Source: Syncephalis plumigaleata
Lineage: Eukaryota > Zoopagomycota > Zoopagomycetes > Zoopagales > Piptocephalidaceae
Assembly: GCA_025201365.1 (NCBI GenBank)
Contig: JAIXMF010000007.1
Span: 248,001 to 312,000, forward strand
DNA length: 64,000 nucleotides
Reading direction: 5' to 3'
Shown here: piece by piece, positions 3,858 to 28,818 of the stretch
How positions within the stretch are numbered: the stretch's first letter is position 1
Layout of the letters: every line of letters begins with the position of its first letter
Program-made: the position numbers and the translations under genes
The notes under the pieces: generated by a model
The model's input: the letters and a program-made list of their open reading frames with translations, nothing else
Database searches by the model: none
What the model was told of the DNA's origin: nothing

Positions 3858-5027
3858 TAAGTGAGGTGGAGATATCATTCATCACCTCCTCATACTATTA
3901 TTACTACTACCATTGTTATTGTTATTTTGTTTGGCAGCTATTACTGCTATGTTCAAATACTGCATATTCGTTTACTTTTCGTTTATTAATCTTTCTCTTT
4001 TCCTTTCGTTCTGTTTCTTTCCTTTGTCTTCATCGTCTTCATCGCCGTTATCCTCTCCTCCTCTTCTCCTTCTCCTCTTCTCCTTCTTATTGACAGGTGT
4101 AGTGTTGCAACTGTATTATTATTATTACTAGTAGTAGTGGTAATAATATGGTTGCCTCACTTACCAAACTATATTATCTGTTGTTTCCTTTCTATTCTTA
4201 TCATGTACACGGTTACTTTTATCGGTTCATTTCATTTCCTGCTCACATACACTTTATCTTCAATCTCCATAATAGGACTATTACCATTGATTACGTTTAT
4301 CTCGATTGATTTTCTTATATTTTTACTATATTATTATATCATCATCATCATTGCTATTACTATTAACTAGATGGCACCTGCTATCTATTAACACCCTTTT
4401 GGTGTATTTCTTCTATTCTAACGATCCTTGTCCCTCATTTATATGGTAATAAGCGCCTATTAGGATATCATCTATGATGGATAGATCATGTTACCTACAT
4501 GCTTGGATGATACTTTATTATTTCATCTAATCCTGTTAACTCGCTCTACTCTTCAATCTAGTCTAGATAGATGTTGATATCGTTTGTATAGGTGCATGTG
4601 TGCGCGTATGTTCCTTTAACAAATAGTATACCTGTGTATTTTGTAGCTATTGCGTTTCTTTCTCTTTTCTTTTTATGATACTTTCTCGTATGTGTGCGCA
4701 CGTCTCTACTCTCTACTCTTCTCTACTCTACTTTTATATCTATTCAACGTAGCATGGTCCTTTTTGACCGCAATATTTATCCTTTTTAACGACGCTTTCT
4801 ACATACTCATTATTCTCGCACACACTTCGACCAAGTTCCTTTTTACTACTATCATTATCACTACTATTTATCGGCTTTGTTTAATAAAAATGACACCTGT
4901 CACTGAACATTGAATAGTCCAGAAAATGTTGTATTATTTACTTGTGTAATCCTCGCCTTTATTTATTTATTTATTTATTGAATCATCGTGTGTTATCCAC
5001 ATCATAGAAAACCATACTCTTTCCTTT
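3858..5027. other. Gene-free, pyrimidine-rich spacer
   Basis: The plus strand is very rich in C and T, with TCT/TTC runs near 3950-4090 and a TTTA microsatellite at 4960-4980. The open frames seen here code only for Leu/Phe/Ser/Tyr-rich low-complexity peptides and are products of base composition. The 3' UTR of the TPR-like gene and the promoter of TEL2 must lie inside. Confidence 0.55.
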
Positions 5028-9212: not shown

Positions 9213-9394
9213 TAGCAGTAGCAGTAGCAATATTAGTAGTAATCATCAGTATTCGCCTTTTATTATTCAATGGATATTGTATAGACTGTAAAATCTAGCA
9301 TTAATAAACATGATAATCACTTTTTGATATTAACTTGTCGTCTATGTCAAGTCAATTAATACGCGTCTTATTAAGAGTGGAAATGCTAACATTA

Positions 9395-9420
9395 CAGGCT
9401 TTTTCCATCCAATTTGCGTA
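9395..9420 (+). repeat. Left terminal inverted repeat
   Basis: This copy pairs with the inverted copy at 9971-9996 over about 26 bases; the first bases differ (CAGGC against CAGTG) and the core is identical. It is preceded by TA. On the coding (minus) strand it is the 3' end of the Fanzor element. Confidence 0.8.
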
Positions 9421-9495
9421 GTTAGCCTTCTGTCTTTATGAATAAATAATGATGATGTTATCACTTACAAGTATTTCTACTCCGTATTTTGGGGT

Positions 9496-9521
9496 GCCAC
9501 AGTCGTTTGGGCGACAGTGGC
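9496..9521 (-). ncRNA. Hairpin after the Fanzor stop, candidate guide-RNA (omega-RNA-like) scaffold
   Basis: GCCACAGTCG at 9496-9505 pairs with CGACAGTGGC at 9512-9521 around a six-base loop, giving ten pairs with one mismatch in the middle. A short outer pairing (GTAT at 9484-9487 with ATAC at 9531-9534) may extend it. It begins about 20 bases after the Fanzor stop codon on the minus strand, inside the element. In TnpB and Fanzor systems the guide RNA scaffold lies at or just past the end of the nuclease gene and ends at the transposon boundary. The assignment is by position and structure only. Confidence 0.4.
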
Positions 9522-9541
9522 GGGTTGACGATACAACCTGG

Positions 9542-9760
9542 TTAATTTGTTTTTTGATGTTTAGATCCCTCTTGATCTTGATCTTCATTTAGTGAATGCT
9601 TTGCGAATGTACTAGGCTCAGGAGGAGAAACGGCACGTCGTTGGAATTGTGTTGGAATAGGGTTGTCCTCACGAACACTGCGGATAATCTGAATAAAATT
9701 CAGACATGCAGCCATATCCCGATTCCATACACGATAATCAATAGCTACTTGTAAGTACAT
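9542..9760 (-). pseudogene. Fanzor nuclease C-terminal fragment
   Basis: The frame reads YRVWNRDMAACLNFIQIIR and goes on to NPIPTQFQRR, then a polar Glu/Asp/Gln-rich tail. The NRD-x-x-A-x-x-N block is the RuvC-III motif of TnpB/Fanzor proteins, whose Asp is catalytic. The RuvC-I and RuvC-II motifs and the zinc ribbon that should precede it are missing, so this is a remnant and not a working nuclease. The nominal start Met is not meaningful; similarity begins around 9735. Confidence 0.7.
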
Positions 9761-9970
9761 GACATGGCAATATTCAACTATACTAGTACACTTGTATCGT
9801 CTATCTTATAGAATTGATGATGATAGTTATCGCTATCAATCAATGATCCATTACTGAATACTGAATTGTTATTATTATCATGCTGTATCAATTGCCATTT
9901 CTACGGTGATAATGGTGTTAACAATTGTGTAAATCCATTTATTAATGAACTGCAAATGTTAAAGGATAAA

Positions 9971-9996
9971 TGCGCAAATTGGATGGAAAAACACTG
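9971..9996 (-). repeat. Right terminal inverted repeat
   Basis: Reverse complement of the left end; it finishes in CACTG followed by TA. On the minus strand it reads CAGTG followed by the shared TTTTTCCATCCAATTTGCG core, the usual start of Tc1/mariner-like ends, and marks the 5' end of the element. Confidence 0.8.
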
Positions 9997-10119
9997 TATT
10001 GCTGTAAAGTAGGAATTTAAAAAATATTTTTTCTATTTATCGCTTTTTGACGATTCTTGCCATTATTTTACGGATTCTCGTTTTGATTGTTGTCCTCATT
10101 AACTTGATCTAAAGTAATA

Positions 10120-11533
10120 ATGTACACGCGTATTGCTAGTAATGCTATGGGTAGAATTACCTTGAGAAGGTAAGTTATACGCTATATAATATAGTTGAAC
10201 ATGTTTACTTATTTGATATCAACTCTATCAATAATAGCACGGGTCTATCAGCTTTGTCTACACCAATAATTGCTCATAGACAGTCAGTAAGTAGTATTCT
10301 AGTTGTAGTAACATGTATATTTATGTATGTGTATGTATGTATGTATGTATGTACTATAGGCAACACGTATCAATCAGCATGCTCGTCAGCTTTCGTCGTT
10401 CAGTAATACGTGGTCTAAACGACCTTCCACCGGTTTAGCAAGTATCCGCGGTGCTAGTTCTAACTTTGCCGCCATCCACAAGCTAAGCAGTGTTCGTTTC
10501 TCGTCGACGTTTAGCAATCAAACGGAAGCAGTGGGTGTTGCTCCATTGACTGCACCAGTAACACCAGAGATCAGCATTGACACTACTAGTCAAGTGGTAG
10601 ATCCAGTGGCGGCGGATACAGTAGTCAATGCTGCTAATACAGCCCTGCATATCGGTGATTTCAAAGCGATGGGTCTCGCCAATTATACACCAGTTGGTGC
10701 GGTAGAAGCTCTACTGGAGGCCGTTCAAGTATGGACAGGTATGCCATGGTGGTTGACCATTCCCGCCGTTACGGTTATGGTACGTGCTGCAATGGTGCCA
10801 ATTATGGCGGCACAACAGCGTAACACTGTCGCCCTACACAATGTTAGTCCGGAAATGGAGAAGATCAAGAAGAAGTTGGTTCGCGCGCAACAGGATAAGG
10901 ACACGGCCTCTGTTGCTATTCATTCGCAAGAGATACGCGTGTTATTCGAGAAGAATAATGTCAGCCCGATTAGAACGCTATTCCTGTCACTCTCACAATT
11001 CCCGGTGTTTATCTCGTTCTTCCTCGCTCTGCGTAATATGTCGGCCATTCCCGTGCCACAAATGACGGTGGGTGGTCTCGCTTGGTTTGAGAATTTAGCA
11101 GTAGCTGATCCCACCTACATATTTCCCGTTCTGTCGAGTTTAAGTTTCTTGGCCACGTCAGAGGTAGGTTTACTATTCGATACTTGTACCAATACCATCG
11201 ATTGATGACTGAAATACTACCATATAGTTGAACATGCACTTCAATCCTAACACCGCCATGTCATCTCACATGAAATTGGCCATTCGTGTGCTACCCGCAG
11301 CAATGATCGTTTTCACCGCGTCACTTCCAGTGGTAAGTTATTATAGAATAATCGTGTAGATATACAGATATTCATATATTCATCGATGATATTGGTAGTC
11401 TCTTCATATCTACTGGCTCGCATCAAGTCTCTTTTCTATACTCCAGATCATTGCATTCCGTATGCCATTGATACGTAAACTGCTACGAATTCCCGCCTCT
11501 ATCGAGCATCCAAAGGCGTTTATACGTAAATAA
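10120..11533 (+). CDS. OXA1: Mitochondrial inner membrane insertase Oxa1
   Basis: Oxa1 inserts mitochondrially encoded and some imported proteins into the inner membrane (YidC/Oxa1/Alb3 family). Five exons (10120-10169, 10238-10286, 10360-11163, 11228-11332, 11399-11533) give 380 residues. The first 80 residues are rich in Arg, Ser and Ala with almost no acid, as expected of a matrix presequence. The core follows: a first TM around LTIPAVTVMVRAAMVPIM, a charged helix (EMEKIKKKLVRAQQDKD), the FPVFISFFLALRNMS segment, and a last TM (HIYWLASSLFSILQ) that matches the YW-x-x-S-N-x-F-S consensus. The C-terminal tail is short (about 28 residues), while many Oxa1 proteins carry a long ribosome-binding coiled coil. 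Length and all splice phases agree. Confidence 0.93.
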
Positions 11534-11799
11534 CTTAATAGTAAATGAAGCATTAGTACAAGATTTACTATTGACGAATTATGCACGCACATACATATAT
11601 CTATGCTAATATCAAACAAACTAGCTATAATAAAAAGAAAAGAGAATAAATCTTGCACTAATGAATATAAATGTTATGAAATTAGTTTATTAACTGGCTA
11701 ATATAATGTAATCCTCAATAAGAATCAGGATTGAATATTTGCCTATACAGTATATACTAATGAATAGAACAAGGAAGAGCTCTACTGTATAATTGCCAG

Positions 11800-12120
11800 T
11801 TACATTAGATTACTATTGCCTGGTCTGGCACACGTAGGCTTGCCACAGCCTTCTCCTCTTGAGCCTGACTTGACGTAGATGCAGTCATATCCTTTACCGC
11901 ATTTAGATTTGCACACTGGGTTGGCGCATTGAAGACTGGGCGCAGTTGGGACACACTCGGTATCCGGGCATGGATTAGAGACAAAATAACATTTAGTATC
12001 GCCACGACAGTTACACTGGGGCATCACCATAGGACACATAAGCTGGTTCGTTGGAGGGATTCGATAAGCAGTTGTCGTATATGCCAGCATACCGACAACG
12101 ATTAGACTGATGGAACGCAT
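11800..12120 (-). CDS. Small secreted cysteine-rich protein
   Basis: A single-exon frame of 106 residues. It opens with a probable signal peptide (MRSISLIVVGMLAYTTTAYR) and continues with a cysteine-dense mature part containing CNCRGDTKC, CPDTEC and CKSKCGKGYDC. About one residue in six after the signal is Cys, which implies several disulfides and export from the cell. It ends at a TAA at 11800-11802. I recognise no named family; secreted Cys-rich proteins of this size in fungi are often surface or effector-type molecules. The next gene upstream on either strand is far away, so it looks like an isolated accessory gene. Confidence 0.6.
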   Translation of the reverse strand: MRSISLIVVGMLAYTTTAYRIPPTNQLMCPMVMPQCNCRGDTKCYFVSNPCPDTECVPTAPSLQCANPVCKSKCGKGYDCIYVKSGSRGEGCGKPTCARPGNSNLM

Positions 12121-13492
12121 GCTGAGATGATGTTACTTGATAGGTGTTGATTTGATGAATATACTAATTAATGGTTGAAGCAGGCACAATTAGGAATAAG
12201 AAGCGATGAATGTATGGAGTGGCCATTCAACAAGCATGATAACATACGTATATTTATACCTGTGATACCTGTAAGATACTTGTCATAATCCGGTTCATGC
12301 TCACCGGAATCCATTGACGTGCTATACACCATGGTATGGATGTAAACTGGTGGCAAGCGTAGTTATGGTAGTACAATTGCCCCAAAAAGGTTCATATTGC
12401 GGAATGTAAAATTAGCAGTGTTTTAGTATTGTTCTCCGTAGGACACTCCGCAAAGTAGAAGTGGTCAAGTAACCGGTAATACCACTTGGATGTATCAATA
12501 TGTTAGAAATGCGAATCAAACTGGCCTTATTCCAGCACCACAATTAACATTAACAAGTAATGGCACTGGATCGACATTACAAGTCAAGTCAAGTCAATCA
12601 ACCAAGTGATTGCTTGATTGATGTACTTCTCTCGCATTAGTAAAAATTAAAAAAATATCACGGCCTTGTATGGATGATTGTTTTAGCGTCATCATATATC
12701 CATTCATCTCCTGCATACAGCATTCTCTTCCGTAATGGAAGTAGCAGCAGTACTGGTAGTAACAGCAGCAGCAATGCTACTAGTAGTGTAGAATTAGCTC
12801 ACGCTTTGCCCCGATCCACCTCCTGAACACTGTTATGGCCTTTCTTTAATCATGTATTTATTCAATAGTTTGTAGAAGGCATCACATACTAGCAATACAA
12901 CTAAATGATGTGTCAATTTTGATGAACGTTGATTCGTTACTATGCACTTCAATGAAGCTCAATACAGTCTATCATACTAACGTCTGAATGACACTCGCAG
13001 CATGTTCATCCTCACCTTGGTGAACTATCCTAAGCGACACTCGTAGTCAATTCACGACTAGAGCGATTAAACTCCCCCTCTGTATGCCACCCCTTTATGG
13101 TAAACCTTCTATGTGGGGTGTACTACTGCTAGCACTACGGGTAGTAGCAGTATTCTAGCAAGTAAGTAAGCAAGTAAGCAAGCAAACTACACCGTCATGC
13201 GTACCAGTTCTTTCTATACTTCAGGGGTGGTGTCAACAATAAGGGATGGTGTTGCTGACTTGCTGGCCAAGTAGTCCGCTACTTCATCAATGTCATCATC
13301 GTCAACATTAATGAATAAATATAACACGTAATGGTATTTAAGCTTAATCATATTCGTTCTCGCAGCTTCTATCTGTCTTACTTGTTGCATTGTACTCCTA
13401 TCTTAGACTAGGTGCATTCTTATCGATATTCTATGGCCATTCATTGTCATTGGTCATACCCACATCTATATCTACACATTTAGTGCATATCA
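12121..13492. other. Mostly gene-free spacer
   Basis: Contains one possible orphan exon (listed separately at 12443-12609). The rest shows AAGTAAGC-type tandem repeats near 13158-13190 and a weak inverted repeat (CCACCCC near 13088, GGGGTG near 13117). No tRNA or rRNA signature was seen. Confidence 0.45.
12443..12609 (+). other. Possible orphan terminal exon
   Basis: An open stretch follows a plausible acceptor (CCGTAG) and ends in TGA. It reads DTPQSRSGQVTGNTTWMYQ, then ANQTGLIPAPQLTLTSNG, then a Ser/Gln/Lys tail. The composition is protein-like and unlike its surroundings. A small upstream exon around 12361-12390 (SYGSTIAPK) is conceivable, but I could not find a start codon or first exon. 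It may be the end of a small unrecognised gene or a decayed one. Confidence 0.25.
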
Positions 13493-14035
13493 TTGAGTGT
13501 ATTTCTAATTATCATGACTGACAATAGTAATCGTGCTCGTGATATCACTACTACTACTGCTGCTGTTGCTGCTACTTGTCAGCTAGTCAACTGTGAAACT
13601 AGCAATGTATCATGTAGAGCATACGCTAATGCCGATACCGCCTTAACTATTGGACATTCTAGTTTGAAACAAGTCGACGCAAGTTGCAATAACAATGGCA
13701 GTGTCAGTAACCTGTTGCTAGGGACAACACGGGTTCAGCGTGTCAAGCGAGCATGTCTGCCACTAGGCTTGTTTGCAAATCGCTGCACATCACTTGTCGG
13801 TCCATTGGTTGGCATGATTTTATTCATAATAGGCATACGCATGTTTATCACAATACCACCGTCTAATAGCGGTATCAACAAAGATGCACTAGTATCACTG
13901 AGAGCACAAATGAATACAGGCAATTACGACTTGCAACTGTTGAACACACTGATCAAAAAGCAAAGACCAACCGGATTGTTTGACATTTACACCGACTTGT
14001 ACGCTAGACCCATCGATACAACTGATGGAACACGC

Positions 14036-14068
<33 letters not shown>

Positions 14069-14698
14069 AATGATTACATCAAAGAACAAGAATCATCGGC
14101 GGATAAGCGTGCCACATTCAACTACTTAATGGCGATATATGAGACACGATTACGTGCGGATAGATTTGCTTACCAGTTCAAATGCACGATAGGTTGGATC
14201 ATGATTGTAATCGGTGTTATGGCTATGTTCGCGCAAGCATGGTTCGATTGGATGTGTTCACCGTCAGATGGTGACGACAACTACCACGAACGATTGTGTA
14301 TGACATGCGACCATACTGATCCATTCAGATTATTGTCATCATCAGATGATAACATTCGTGATAAACCAGCGGTAATATCAAATGAAGAAAGCGGTAATTC
14401 ATCAAGCAACACTGGTAAATGTGTAAACTCATCTTCTATAACTACTAGTGGCCATATCACTGACACGATAGTAATCATGCCGATATCTGTCGAGCATGAT
14501 GATGCACAAACACAAGATACGTGTACACGTACGAATCAGCCATCAGCTAACGAAGCAACACGCTTGATTGTGGAATCCAGCAGTAGGCAGCATCGTAGTC
14601 TACCAGAGCCACGTCCTATTTGTGCCACATTAGGCACTGGAATTACGTGGACGCCTGCCTGTCTGCATAATCTAAACCACACTACCGATCCTATGTAA
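13493..14698 (+). CDS. Two-TM membrane protein with Asn repeat, unknown function
   Basis: A single-exon frame of 401 residues; translation may instead begin at the second Met (MTDNSN, 13514). The N-terminal 95 residues are Thr/Ser/Asn-rich. A first TM (VGPLVGMILFIIGIRMFI, about 102-120) is followed by a loop of about 115 residues that carries a twelve-Asn run encoded by AAC repeats, then a second TM (IGWIMIVIGVMAMFAQAWF, about 237-255). The last 145 residues are polar, with CMTCDH, SSSDDN and Ser-rich segments. This gives a hairpin topology with both tails on the same side. No catalytic motif or known family was recognised. The frame stays open through an unstable repeat, so the gene is likely real. 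Confidence 0.6.
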
Positions 14699-14819
14699 TT
14701 TATTTATTATTTATCTACTATGTATTTGTTGAAATAGCTGCAATAAATTAAATAGGCCATTGGCCACATTTAAGCAAAAGGATAGTCCAATGATCTTTTA
14801 ATGACACGACATGCAACAT

Positions 14820-16194
14820 CTAACCGAGTGATGGATTGGCCAGTGCTTCGGACAACTTAGTCAATGTCGCATCAGTCTCGGTGGGTGTGCCAACGGTGAT
14901 GCGTAGACAGCCTGCGCATCCCAGTTCATTGCCGCGATAGCGTACGACGACACCTTCATTTGCCATCCATCGGTAGATACGCTCGGCCCGTTGGCTATCA
15001 GGCTCGTTTGTATCGCGTCCACCAATAACGCATAGTACGAAATTGGCATCTTCATGTCCCATCACCCGTACTACACCGGGTAGCGTCACAAGTGTCTCGG
15101 ATAGTCGTTTGCGTTCATTTAGCAGTTGCTGCACGATATTTCGCATCTTGTCGATGCCTTCCGATGATAATGCCTGCTCGGCAAGAGCAATGGTAGGTGC
15201 CGGGATGTTATACGGTGCCTTGATCACATTAAGCCAATGGATGATGCGAGGCGATGCCAATGCAATACCAAGTCTATACGCATCCCATGCTTAGCATGCT
15301 TTCCTTTTTATCAATTCAACATGATCATGTAGACTACTTACCGAATAGCTGCTAAACCAAAGCTTTTACTCAGTGTTTGCATCACAATAAGGTTCGGGTA
15401 ACGCGTAATCCATCGGGCTACACTTCCCTTTGCGTTGTCGTCGTCATCGTCGTCATTCGTATCGGTAGATGATGCATCAACGAAGTCAATATAAGCCTCG
15501 TCGACCACTACTAAGCCGCGATAGTCTGACTCGAGAATACGTCGTATATCTCGTTTGTTCAAACATACACCGGTGGGATTGCCCGGTGAGCACAAGAACA
15601 TGATGCGAATATTCGTGTCTTTCGTCGTTTCCGCTAGAATCTATAAGCGATGTAGAGAGATAGTATGTGTTAACTCCTCCCCTTTTGCATTCATCTATGA
15701 TGGTAACGCCATACCTTATCTACTTGCAACTGGAATCGACCATTTTCAACGTCAAGCGGTACTTTGACAACACCTAGATCATTGGTGGCCGCAGACACAC
15801 TGTACATGCCATAGGTCGGTGGACATATTAGGATCTTGTGCTGACCGGGCACGCCAAATACTCGCATAATAATATCGATAGCCTCGTCGGAACCAACGCC
15901 GAAAAACGCCCATTCCGGTCCTGGTACACGACGCCACTGCGTGTATTTCTCTTTGACGCGTAGATTCAACGGGTCCGGATAGCGGTGATAGCTGGCACGT
16001 GTATCCGCTTTATCAACACTAGTGTCTACGCCACGACTAGGCGGCTGTCCCGATAACATAGCGGGACCATGCGCGTTTTCGTTGGCATCCAGCAGTATAC
16101 CCGTGCTATAGTCATCACGAGCACAACGGTAAGGAGTAAGTGCACGGATATTGGGACGAACTAGTTCGTCTATTAAGAAATCACCGCTAGTCAT
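14820..16194 (-). CDS. HIS5: Histidinol-phosphate aminotransferase
   Basis: This PLP enzyme transfers the amino group of glutamate to imidazole-acetol phosphate in histidine synthesis. Three exons (16194-15715, 15640-15342, 15273-14820) give 410 residues, normal for the family. The fold-I aminotransferase landmarks are present: LLDANENAHGP and YHRYPDP near the N-terminus, GVGSDEAIDIIMRVF, the SPGNPTG loop, VVVDEAYIDF, and the PLP lysine in SKSFGLA. The C-terminal YRGNELGCAGCLRITVGT corresponds to the conserved phosphate/carboxylate-binding Arg region. A poly-Asp insert (NDDDDDDN) sits between the DEAY strand and the lysine and is unlike most homologues; it probably forms a surface loop. The first gene of a long minus-strand block. 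Confidence 0.93.
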
Positions 16195-28220: not shown

Positions 28221-28288
28221 AATCTCGTCGTAAGCTGTCGTATTATTGCGCGTATAACATATCATTTTATATACTGTGTGCTATCCTA

Positions 28289-28344
28289 CAGGCTTTTTCC
28301 ATCCAATTTGCGCAGTTAACTTTCTGTCTTTACAAATAAATAAT
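28289..28344. mobile_element. Terminal fragment of the same transposon family as 9395-9996
   Basis: These 56 bases match 9395-9450 with five differences (about 91 percent) and are also preceded by TA. They comprise the TIR core (TTTTTCCATCCAATTTGCG) and the adjacent subterminal sequence (TTCTGTCTTTA...AATAAATAAT). No matching opposite end was found downstream, so this is a solo end or a strongly truncated copy. Confidence 0.7.
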
Positions 28345-28461
28345 AGCTTTACTAATGCTTCCATTAGCAATTTCTTTTTAACTGTTTGTTAACACTTTAT
28401 TAACTGTCATTAATGATGTACTAATCCATTCCAAGTATCCATTTCATTGTTATTTCCCTTC

Positions 28462-28553
28462 ATTAAACAGCAAGTGCCTTCTTCGTGTCAACTACATTCC
28501 ACTTGTCATTAAATAGTAAATGCCTTCTTTGTGTCAACTACATTCCACTTGTC
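28462..28553 (+). repeat. Two-copy 46-bp tandem repeat
   Basis: 28462-28507 is repeated at 28508-28553 with four differences; both copies contain GTGTCAACTACATTCCACTT. It lies in the spacer between the CYSTM gene and DPM3, and no coding sense was seen. The rest of 28221-28818 is gene-free. Confidence 0.75.
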
Positions 28554-28818
28554 AGTAAACAACACACGTCCACTTCCTCTTAACTATATGCTAGTTATTC
28601 CTTTTCTTTTATTTAAAGAAGTCCTTACCCGTCTATTTACTAATACCTGTCATTATTTATCATTTACGTGACAACAATAGTAACAATAGCAATAAACAAC
28701 ACATAATAAATTCGCTTTATTGATATGTTGCCATTGGGCCATGTTCTAACTAGCTAACTAATGAGATATCCGTTCATTCTTGATTAGAATAGTGTAGCTT
28801 CTTAGTTGTTTGTTTAGC

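What the first reader, a model, noticed from the sequence alone, without database searches (positions are those of the whole stretch)
9395..9996. TA-flanked transposon remnant carrying a Fanzor (eukaryotic RNA-guided nuclease) C-terminus
Sequence shows a 602-bp unit with about 26-bp inverted ends, TA on both sides, and on the minus strand the RuvC-III-like block NRDMAACLNF of TnpB/Fanzor proteins. Fanzors are known to ride on mariner-like elements; here the N-terminal part is missing, so the copy is a non-autonomous derivative. Its presence implies that full Fanzor elements exist or existed in this genome, in a lineage where they are little described.
Basis: partly seen in the sequence, partly recalled or inferred. 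Interest (0 to 1): 0.8.

Follow-up and report, generated by a model that had tools for sequence, protein, structure and literature searches.

The report
Fanzor "ghost" transposon in a mycoparasite
A short mobile DNA element in a parasitic fungus carries the tail end of a gene for an RNA-guided DNA-cutting protein and the region expected to make its guide RNA; it is one of hundreds of copies, and their insertion sites look as if such a protein may help decide where they stay.

Summary
9395-9996 is a 602-bp element with 26-bp inverted ends (23 of 26 identical) and TA on both sides; its minus strand carries the last exon of a Fanzor1 gene with RuvC-III (NRDMAACLNF). The genome is Syncephalis plumigaleata (Zoopagomycota, a mycoparasite). 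It holds 41 loci of the long Fanzor exon (protein E 7.6e-107 to Parasitella Fanzor1) and 896 copies of the inverted end.

The unit is an internal deletion of the full ~4-kb element: left ~250 bp plus right end (last exon, hairpin-bearing 3' region, right TIR). This is the kind called "ghost" Spu-1 elements in Spizellomyces (Saito 2023). Two further results. (1) The base before the left TA is A in 40 of 59 insertions, before the right TA in 17 of 63; this fits the measured ATN TAM of Parasitella Fanzor1. (2) At this insertion site two contigs differ by 8.8% inside the element but 1.6% in the flanks (29 of 48 differences shared with other copies): copies exchange sequence in place. Four of eight site pairs show this; one shows the reverse.

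Most likely a transposon mobilised in trans whose right-end RNA can guide Fanzor made elsewhere. That the RNA is made and used is inferred; no transposase partner was found.

The parts
9393..9394 (.). TA target-site duplication, right-end side
   Evidence: read directly
9997..9998 (.). TA target-site duplication, left-end side
   Evidence: read directly
9395..9996 (-). 602-bp Fanzor ghost element (internal-deletion derivative); left end at 9996, right end at 9395
9395..9420 (-). right-end terminal inverted repeat (CAGGC form); its AGCC can pair with the GGCT just inside it
9971..9996 (-). left-end terminal inverted repeat (CAGTG form)
9745..9997 (-). left segment, 93.3% identical to bases 1-253 of full-length element L056 (non-coding 5' part)
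9394..9739 (-). right segment, 85.6% identical to the last 348 bases of full-length element L056; about 3.5 kb lies between the two segments there
9542..9760 (-). ORF of 72 aa: remnant of the last Fanzor1 exon fused to left-end sequence
9695..9724 (-). NRDMAACLNF, RuvC-III block with the third catalytic Asp
9523..9538 (-). hairpin P1 (GGTTG-TATCGT-CAACC) just after the stop codon; one pair is GC/AU/GU across copies
9496..9521 (-). hairpin P2 (GCCAC.GTCG/CGAC.GTGGC); replaced by an unrelated hairpin or absent in other copies
9466..9486 (-). possible hairpin P3 (TACGGAGTA...TACTTGTA), seen in several single folds, not in the consensus fold
9997..9999 (-). ATA outside the left end: candidate TAM (A plus the TA duplication)
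   Evidence: family-wide bias
9375..9394 (-). flank outside the right end, where the guide part of a right-end RNA would be copied from (inferred by analogy with SpuFz1)
   Evidence: inference; PMC10432273 section 7
28288..28609 (-). second, rearranged fragment of the family: 57-59 bp of right end plus scattered pieces of the full-length 5' region

Best explanation
The unit is a non-autonomous 'ghost' of a Fanzor1-carrying, TA-inserting DNA transposon of Syncephalis plumigaleata. A deletion removed about 3.5 kb (most of the 5' region and all of the gene but its last exon) and kept both transposon ends, the last Fanzor exon and the 3' region to the right end. The deleted form was then multiplied by a transposase supplied in trans. 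The kept right end has the position of the omega (right-end) RNA of other Fanzors: its transcript would carry the flanking genomic sequence as guide, and Fanzor protein from intact copies could load it and cut the empty site next to an ATA motif, so that the element is restored or kept there by repair. Shown: identity, deletion anatomy, copy number, Fanzor genes with open frames, hairpins in the kept 3' region of many copies with limited covariation, one-sided A before the left TA, in-place sequence exchange at some sites. Inferred: that the RNA is made, that Fanzor uses it, that cutting causes the bias and the exchange, and that a transposase acts in trans.
For: Long-exon protein P0001: PpFz1 9cf0 E 7.6e-107, SpuFz1 2.2e-35, GtFz1 3.5e-4. 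41 genomic loci by my merging of the table, haplotigs and fragments included; 18 of 41 have an open frame of 600 codons or more and no stop inside any match. In 16 of 20 regions read both ends were recognised; 15 span 3986-4381 bp, one (L054) 5872. Left segment 93.3% and right segment 85.6% identical to full-length L056. Species identified from protein names and from contig lengths equal to this genome's: 3046566, 1947659, 1545695, 992476, 48072. Left-end bias: exact-pattern counts LE A 138 vs other 78, RE A 54 vs other 170 (haplotigs included; Fisher 2e-17); large contigs up to C288 only, 52 of 84 vs 27 of 86 (p 1e-4); 81 paired insertions, A at LE only 42, at RE only 14 (p 2e-4); 64 de-duplicated insertions, ends without a TA left out, LE 40 of 59, RE 17 of 63, position -1 permutation p 0.0005 on the 58 with both ends. 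Measured TAMs: PpFz1 ATN, SpuFz1 CATA. RNA: pair 48/61 is GC 21, AU 9, GU 4 of 34 distinct rows; cells changed on both sides 11 vs 3.6 shuffled, 0 of 500. The 75 bases before the AATAC block fold with z < -2 in 28 of 49 copies: 12 of 19 A, 11 of 15 full-length, 3 of 9 B, 2 of 6 C (mononucleotide shuffles; the 5 smallest copies and duplicates left out).
Against: No transcript data. Whole 150-nt right ends fold only slightly better than dinucleotide shuffles: z -2.15 for the window copy, between -1.79 and +0.31 for 7 others. RNAalifold's covariation term is small (-0.39) and only 1 of 13 predicted pairs has a both-sides change; the +3 slide control for P1 has a higher covariation score, 0.242 vs 0.154; column pair 46/63 is unpaired in 26 of 33 rows. 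In one search one B copy (L083) missed the anchor and was folded whole (z +0.8). The P1 core TTG-TATCRT-CAA is present in 35 of 54 copies; B and C copies mostly have another hairpin, and the smallest class (212-240 bp) lacks P1 and P2 and is still multi-copy. B copies fetched show A at LE in 2 of 7. By class the right end is not free of A either: 11 of 27 in the 0.55-0.6-kb pairs. The exchange is clear in 4 of 8 site pairs only and reversed in one. No transposase partner was identified.
Confidence: 0.7

Rival explanations
1. An ordinary MITE: a deletion derivative in which the Fanzor exon and 3' hairpins are passive baggage. Only the TIRs matter; copies spread by transposase, and the one-sided A comes from the transposase reading unlike ends (CAGTG versus CAGGC), not from Fanzor.
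For: A size class of 212-240 bp keeps only about 55 bp of the right end and still has several copies (5 read; 8 exact pairs). LE and RE differ at TIR positions 4-5 in most ends read, so a transposase could orient itself. pN/pS of the kept exon piece is 0.54 in A (16 of 19 copies usable), 0.63 in B (9 of 9, two frameshifted, 21 of 36 pairs usable) and 0.73 in full-length copies (15 of 15, one frameshifted, 91 of 105 pairs), so the ghost peptide shows no selection of its own beyond the full-length copies.
Against: The biased base is the one predicted by the measured TAM of the nearest characterised Fanzor, and the left end shows it far more than the right. Saito et al. report the same kind of left-side motif (CA) at both Fanzor and ghost loci in Spizellomyces, and ghost RNAs active in human cells.
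Confidence: 0.3
2. A dead remnant with no current activity, diverging by mutation.
For: 14 of 150 peptide matches carry an in-frame stop (my count). Some copies have damaged termini, e.g. L015 at the right and L019 at the left end.
Against: Hundreds of copies with near-identical TIRs; 18 of 41 Fanzor loci still open; at four ghost sites 71 of 112 differences between the two contigs have both variants in other copies, which points to exchange rather than decay.
Confidence: 0.12
3. The peptide resembles Fanzor by chance and belongs to another transposon protein.
For: 72 aa alone: Pfam none, PDB E 0.01. PF07282 is hit below its cut-off in the full protein.
Against: It is the last exon of a gene whose long exon matches a solved Fanzor1 at E 7.6e-107, with the catalytic residues and zinc ribbon conserved.
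Confidence: 0.01

Closest known systems
"Ghost" Spu-1 elements of Spizellomyces punctatus (Saito et al. 2023, PMC10432273; section 7 and passages read)
   Same: Two inverted ends of a TA-flanked Fanzor1 element around a region of about 550 nt, Fanzor ORF lost, right-end RNA region kept, high copy (134 loci there), a preferred motif outside the left end (CA there), no transposase found inside the elements.
   Different: Here the last Fanzor exon with RuvC-III is still present; ghost and full-length TIRs are nearly identical rather than different at seven positions; several size classes (about 0.23, 0.55-0.6, 1.0-1.3 kb); exchangeable 3' hairpins; different phylum.
Fanzor1 of Parasitella parasitica, PpFz1 (PDB 9cf0; PMC11423790, passages read)
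   Same: Best match among solved structures; TAM ATN fits the ATA seen here.
   Different: P0001 aligns in two blocks (31-529 and 544-655); about 110 residues of the PpFz1 chain between them have no counterpart. They may be the FRI domain described in that paper; not tested.
Fanzor elements in DNA transposons (Bao and Jurka 2013, PMC3627910; passages read)
   Same: Fanzor1 as passenger of TIR elements in fungi, including TA-flanked SPu-1 with 33-bp TIRs and no transposase.
   Different: The passages read name no Syncephalis and no high-copy deletion derivatives of SPu-1.
TnpB-driven retention and gene drive of IS200/IS605 (PMC11870625, passages read)
   Same: Proposed logic: the right-end guide records the insertion site and the nuclease cuts empty sites.
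   Different: Tested there in bacteria with TnpB; only inferred here.

Membership tests
Fanzor1 (protein of the parent element) | Sequence relationship to characterised Fanzor1 proteins | tested here: met
   E 7.6e-107 PpFz1, 2.2e-35 SpuFz1, 3.5e-4 GtFz1
Fanzor1 (protein of the parent element) | RuvC D-E-D with DPG signature, plus zinc ribbon | tested here: met
   VDPGRR, IDEHKTS, CCPAC, WNRDMAACLN in the alignment of 11 sequences, some of them partial; the DPG signature of Fanzors is described in PMC10711439 (passage). PF07282 is hit only below its cut-off.
Fanzor1 (protein of the parent element) | RNA-guided DNA cleavage | not testable with these tools
   no bench data
Window element as an intact Fanzor gene | RuvC-I, RuvC glutamate and zinc ribbon present in the unit | tested here: not met
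   only the last exon with RuvC-III remains; 602 bp
Fanzor ghost element | Both ends of a Fanzor element, gene lost | tested here: met
   93.3% and 85.6% to the two ends of L056 with about 3.5 kb missing
Fanzor ghost element | Right-end RNA region kept | tested here: inconclusive
   region kept and hairpins present, controls mixed; the RNA itself not shown
Fanzor ghost element | TAM-like motif outside the left end | tested here: met
   window copy ATA; A before left TA in 40 of 59, before right TA in 17 of 63; 138 of 216 vs 54 of 224 by whole-genome exact patterns, haplotigs included
Tc1/mariner transposon | TA target-site duplication and TIRs | tested here: met
   TA at 46 of 47 left and 50 of 51 right ends in the first set
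Tc1/mariner transposon | DDE transposase encoded by the element or by a partner with the same TIRs | tested here: inconclusive
   no long ORF besides Fanzor in L056. Of 26 DDE_3 loci none has listed TIR places within 5 kb on both sides, but the TIR lists are exact-match and cut off, so a partner is not excluded. One DDE_3 locus, C1:572852, lies inside an interrupted Fanzor exon.

The most novel reading that the evidence does not exclude
The ghosts are RNA-only homing elements. Each copy makes a guide RNA from its own insertion site, borrows Fanzor from intact copies, and is kept or rewritten in place through double-strand break repair from other copies. The ATA bias and the patchwork alleles would then be a genomic footprint of what Fanzor does for its transposon in a eukaryote, and would show that it serves its gene-less relatives in trans.
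Probability: 0.3. Interest if true: 0.85.

Novelty: new member of a known kind. Interest (0 to 1): 0.56.

Why it matters
The biological role of Fanzor nucleases is stated to be unknown (PMC10432273 discussion, passage). This genome offers hundreds of insertions of gene-bearing and gene-less relatives with the same ends, Fanzor genes with open frames and two versions of several insertion sites, so the retention or homing idea can be tested by counting: TAM bias with and without the RNA region, empty against filled alleles, and conversion tracts. It also adds a phylum (Zoopagomycota) and a mycoparasite whose Fanzors, among the named proteins found, are nearest to those of Mucorales.

Tried and rejected
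Long-range pairing of the stop-codon region (CAGGTT) with the terminal AGCCTG: suggested by minimum-energy folds, and L049 changes both sides, but other copies with CAGATT (L018, L051, L053, L062) keep AGCCTG; rejected. Selection on the ghost peptide: pN/pS gives no support beyond the full-length copies. Cytosine-deamination-type decay (RIP) as the cause of the divergent alleles: 21 of 48 window-copy differences are transversions and only 1 of the 112 differences at four sites has neither variant in at least 2 other copies; rejected as main cause. PF03184 (DDE_1): nothing found, but the control genomes also gave nothing, so no conclusion. Rfam: no match at gathering scores in the window. Ploidy from a 10-kb query: uninformative because candidate scoring was filled by repeats. 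'Two haplotypes' rests on small contigs pairing with large ones at about 97-99.7% in the flanks and on a paper reporting that three of four Zoopagomycota studied were not haploid (PMC6784888, passages; it studied another Syncephalis species); recent duplications are not excluded. Structure prediction was not run because settled the family.

Full report
What is there. The window lies in G000:C351:248001-312000, a 32.6-Mb assembly of 383 contigs. Proteins of this genome are named Syncephalis plumigaleata in the protein search, and five contig lengths there equal contig lengths here; the species is a zoopagalean fungus. The unit 9395-9996 is flanked by TA on both sides and has 26-bp inverted ends, 23 of 26 identical, with CAGGC at the right and CAGTG at the left end. 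The nearest long ORF is at 10531-11205 (OXA1-like; name by recall).

Family. A 631-bp query gave 40 of 40 scored candidates at 84-100%, one of them the window itself (996 candidates). The TIR occurs 454 + 442 times with up to 2 mismatches, control 0. The 72-aa peptide gave 150 scored matches of 418 candidates; by my count 18 belong to the full-length loci fetched and 14 have an in-frame stop. By pairing exact ends on contigs C1-C288, 81 pairs fall at 231-244 bp (8), 539-608 (27), 975-1329 (36), 4001-4365 (5) and other sizes (5) (sizes include the TA and one flanking base on each side; ends with any mismatch are not in this set).

Parent element. 20 regions around weak zinc-ribbon hits (PF07282: 25 matches, none over the cut-off) were read. 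In the intact ones a frame of roughly 610-670 codons is followed, after an intron, by the last exon with NRDMAACLNF, between the same TIRs. Both ends were recognised in 16 of the 20; 15 of these span 3986-4381 bp and L054 5872. The long exon (P0001) matches PpFz1 at 7.6e-107. Genome-wide, 80 matches merge by my count into 41 loci, haplotigs and fragments included, 18 of them with an open frame of at least 600 codons and no stop inside any match. The 1.6 kb before the gene has no ORF above 75 aa in L056.

The deletion. Window 9997-9745 aligns to bases 1-253 of L056 at 93.3%, and 9739-9394 to its last 348 bases at 85.6%. The majority sequences of 18 A and 9 B copies share this junction, pointing to one founding deletion. 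The 1.1-kb copies keep other pieces.

RNA region. 38 right ends (full-length and A ghosts, 34 distinct rows) were aligned. All rows carry the P1 loop region; one P1 pair is GC 21, AU 9, GU 4 of 34, two never-failing neighbours do not vary, and the outermost tested pair, columns 46/63, is unpaired in 26 of 33. Over all classes the core TTG-TATCRT-CAA is in 35 of 54 copies; B and C copies mostly carry another hairpin in its place. A second hairpin exists in two unrelated forms or is missing. This suggests a constrained RNA, but the controls are mixed: 150-nt folds have z from -2.15 to +0.31 in 8 copies, and sliding P1 by 3 columns gives a higher covariation score.

Insertion sites. In the first set of 51 insertions A precedes the left TA in 30 of 46 and the right TA in 14 of 50. 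With the added ends, 64 insertions give 40 of 59 and 17 of 63; positions -2 and -4 are weakly asymmetric (p 0.03, 0.02), -7 nearly so (0.05), -3, -5, -6 and -8 not. Ends without a TA were left out of these tables. Whole-genome exact patterns, haplotigs included, give 138 of 216 and 54 of 224. By class in the paired list the A counts, left then right, are 20 and 11 of 27 (0.55-0.6 kb), 25 and 10 of 36 (1.1 kb), 4 and 1 of 8 (0.23 kb), 3 and 3 of 5 (4 kb), 2 and 1 of 5 (others). B copies read in full show 2 of 7 on the left. A transposase that treats both sides of TA alike would not give this; Fanzor retention with an ATN TAM would; so might a transposase that reads its two ends differently. No unrelated TA-inserting family was available as control.

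Exchange in place. Eight site pairs on two contigs were compared (exact counts, which replace the rounded ones). Element divergence clearly exceeds flank divergence in four: window copy L001/L007 53/599 vs 19/1185 (p 2e-12), L012/L025 34/557 vs 5/1120 (2e-12), L057/L061 120/4219 vs 5/1197 (2e-8), L010/L054 20/373 vs 15/1299 (7e-6; BLAST pieces, only the right flank matches). It does not in L014/L017 (18/582 vs 20/1184, p 0.08), L018/L026 (11/572 vs 11/1192, 0.11) and L051/L052 (37/3749 vs 14/982, 0.23), and is reversed in L060/L059 (1/2331 vs 18/1326, 1e-7). In a joint alignment of 32 ghosts, 48 + 34 + 18 + 12 columns differ in four ghost pairs; 71 of 112 have both variants in at least two other copies, 40 one of them, 1 neither. 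In L014/L017 all 18 differences lie in the first 302 bases. Among the 32, the nearest relative of the window copy is L002 (0.938), not its counterpart L007, which is not in its six nearest (0.920 as listed for L007).

Literature. Saito et al. describe ghost Spu-1 loci and propose help in trans (section 7 and passages). In the library, 'Fanzor' with 'ghost' gives only that paper and 'Fanzor' with 'Syncephalis' none; most subscription papers and bioRxiv's own holdings are outside it. Relatives of the protein in two searches are from Syncephalis and Mucorales, plus two unnamed entries (P0017, P0020) (only about 7990 best word-sharing candidates were scored each time), so a wider distribution is not excluded.

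Verdict. The thing is a Fanzor ghost transposon, a known kind in another phylum, with two population signals that make Fanzor's role testable.

Noticed in passing
window 28288-28609: A second fragment of the same family: TA plus right end, followed by scattered pieces of the full-length 5' region in rearranged order.
   Followed up: partly
window 11607-16000: A 4.4-kb stretch with copies at 95-96% in C351:226273-230642 and C82:6314-10695, and partial copies elsewhere; reading frames in it include an aminotransferase-like protein (by eye). Looks like a segmental duplication.
   Followed up: no
G000:C28:3205-5194 and C112:994942-996986: Two TIR pairs about 2.0 kb apart, a size unlike the other classes; candidates for a transposase-bearing partner.
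   Followed up: no
G000:C1:570359-573974: A Fanzor long exon in two pieces with a DDE_3 transposase frame (C1:572852-573292, opposite strand) between them; similar DDE_3 frames occur at four other places. Looks like a Tc1-like element nested in the gene; a TIR of the Fanzor family lies 3 kb to the left.
   Followed up: partly
L054 (C318) and L010 (C156): Same right flank (98.8% over 1.3 kb) but a 5.9-kb Fanzor-bearing element on one contig and a ghost-like, left-truncated one on the other; the left flanks do not match.
   Followed up: partly
L054 between the two Fanzor exons: The intron is about 1.7 kb instead of about 70 bases, so something is inserted in it.
   Followed up: no
Named relatives outside Syncephalis are Mucorales, hosts of such mycoparasites (by recall); horizontal transfer was not tested.
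   Followed up: no
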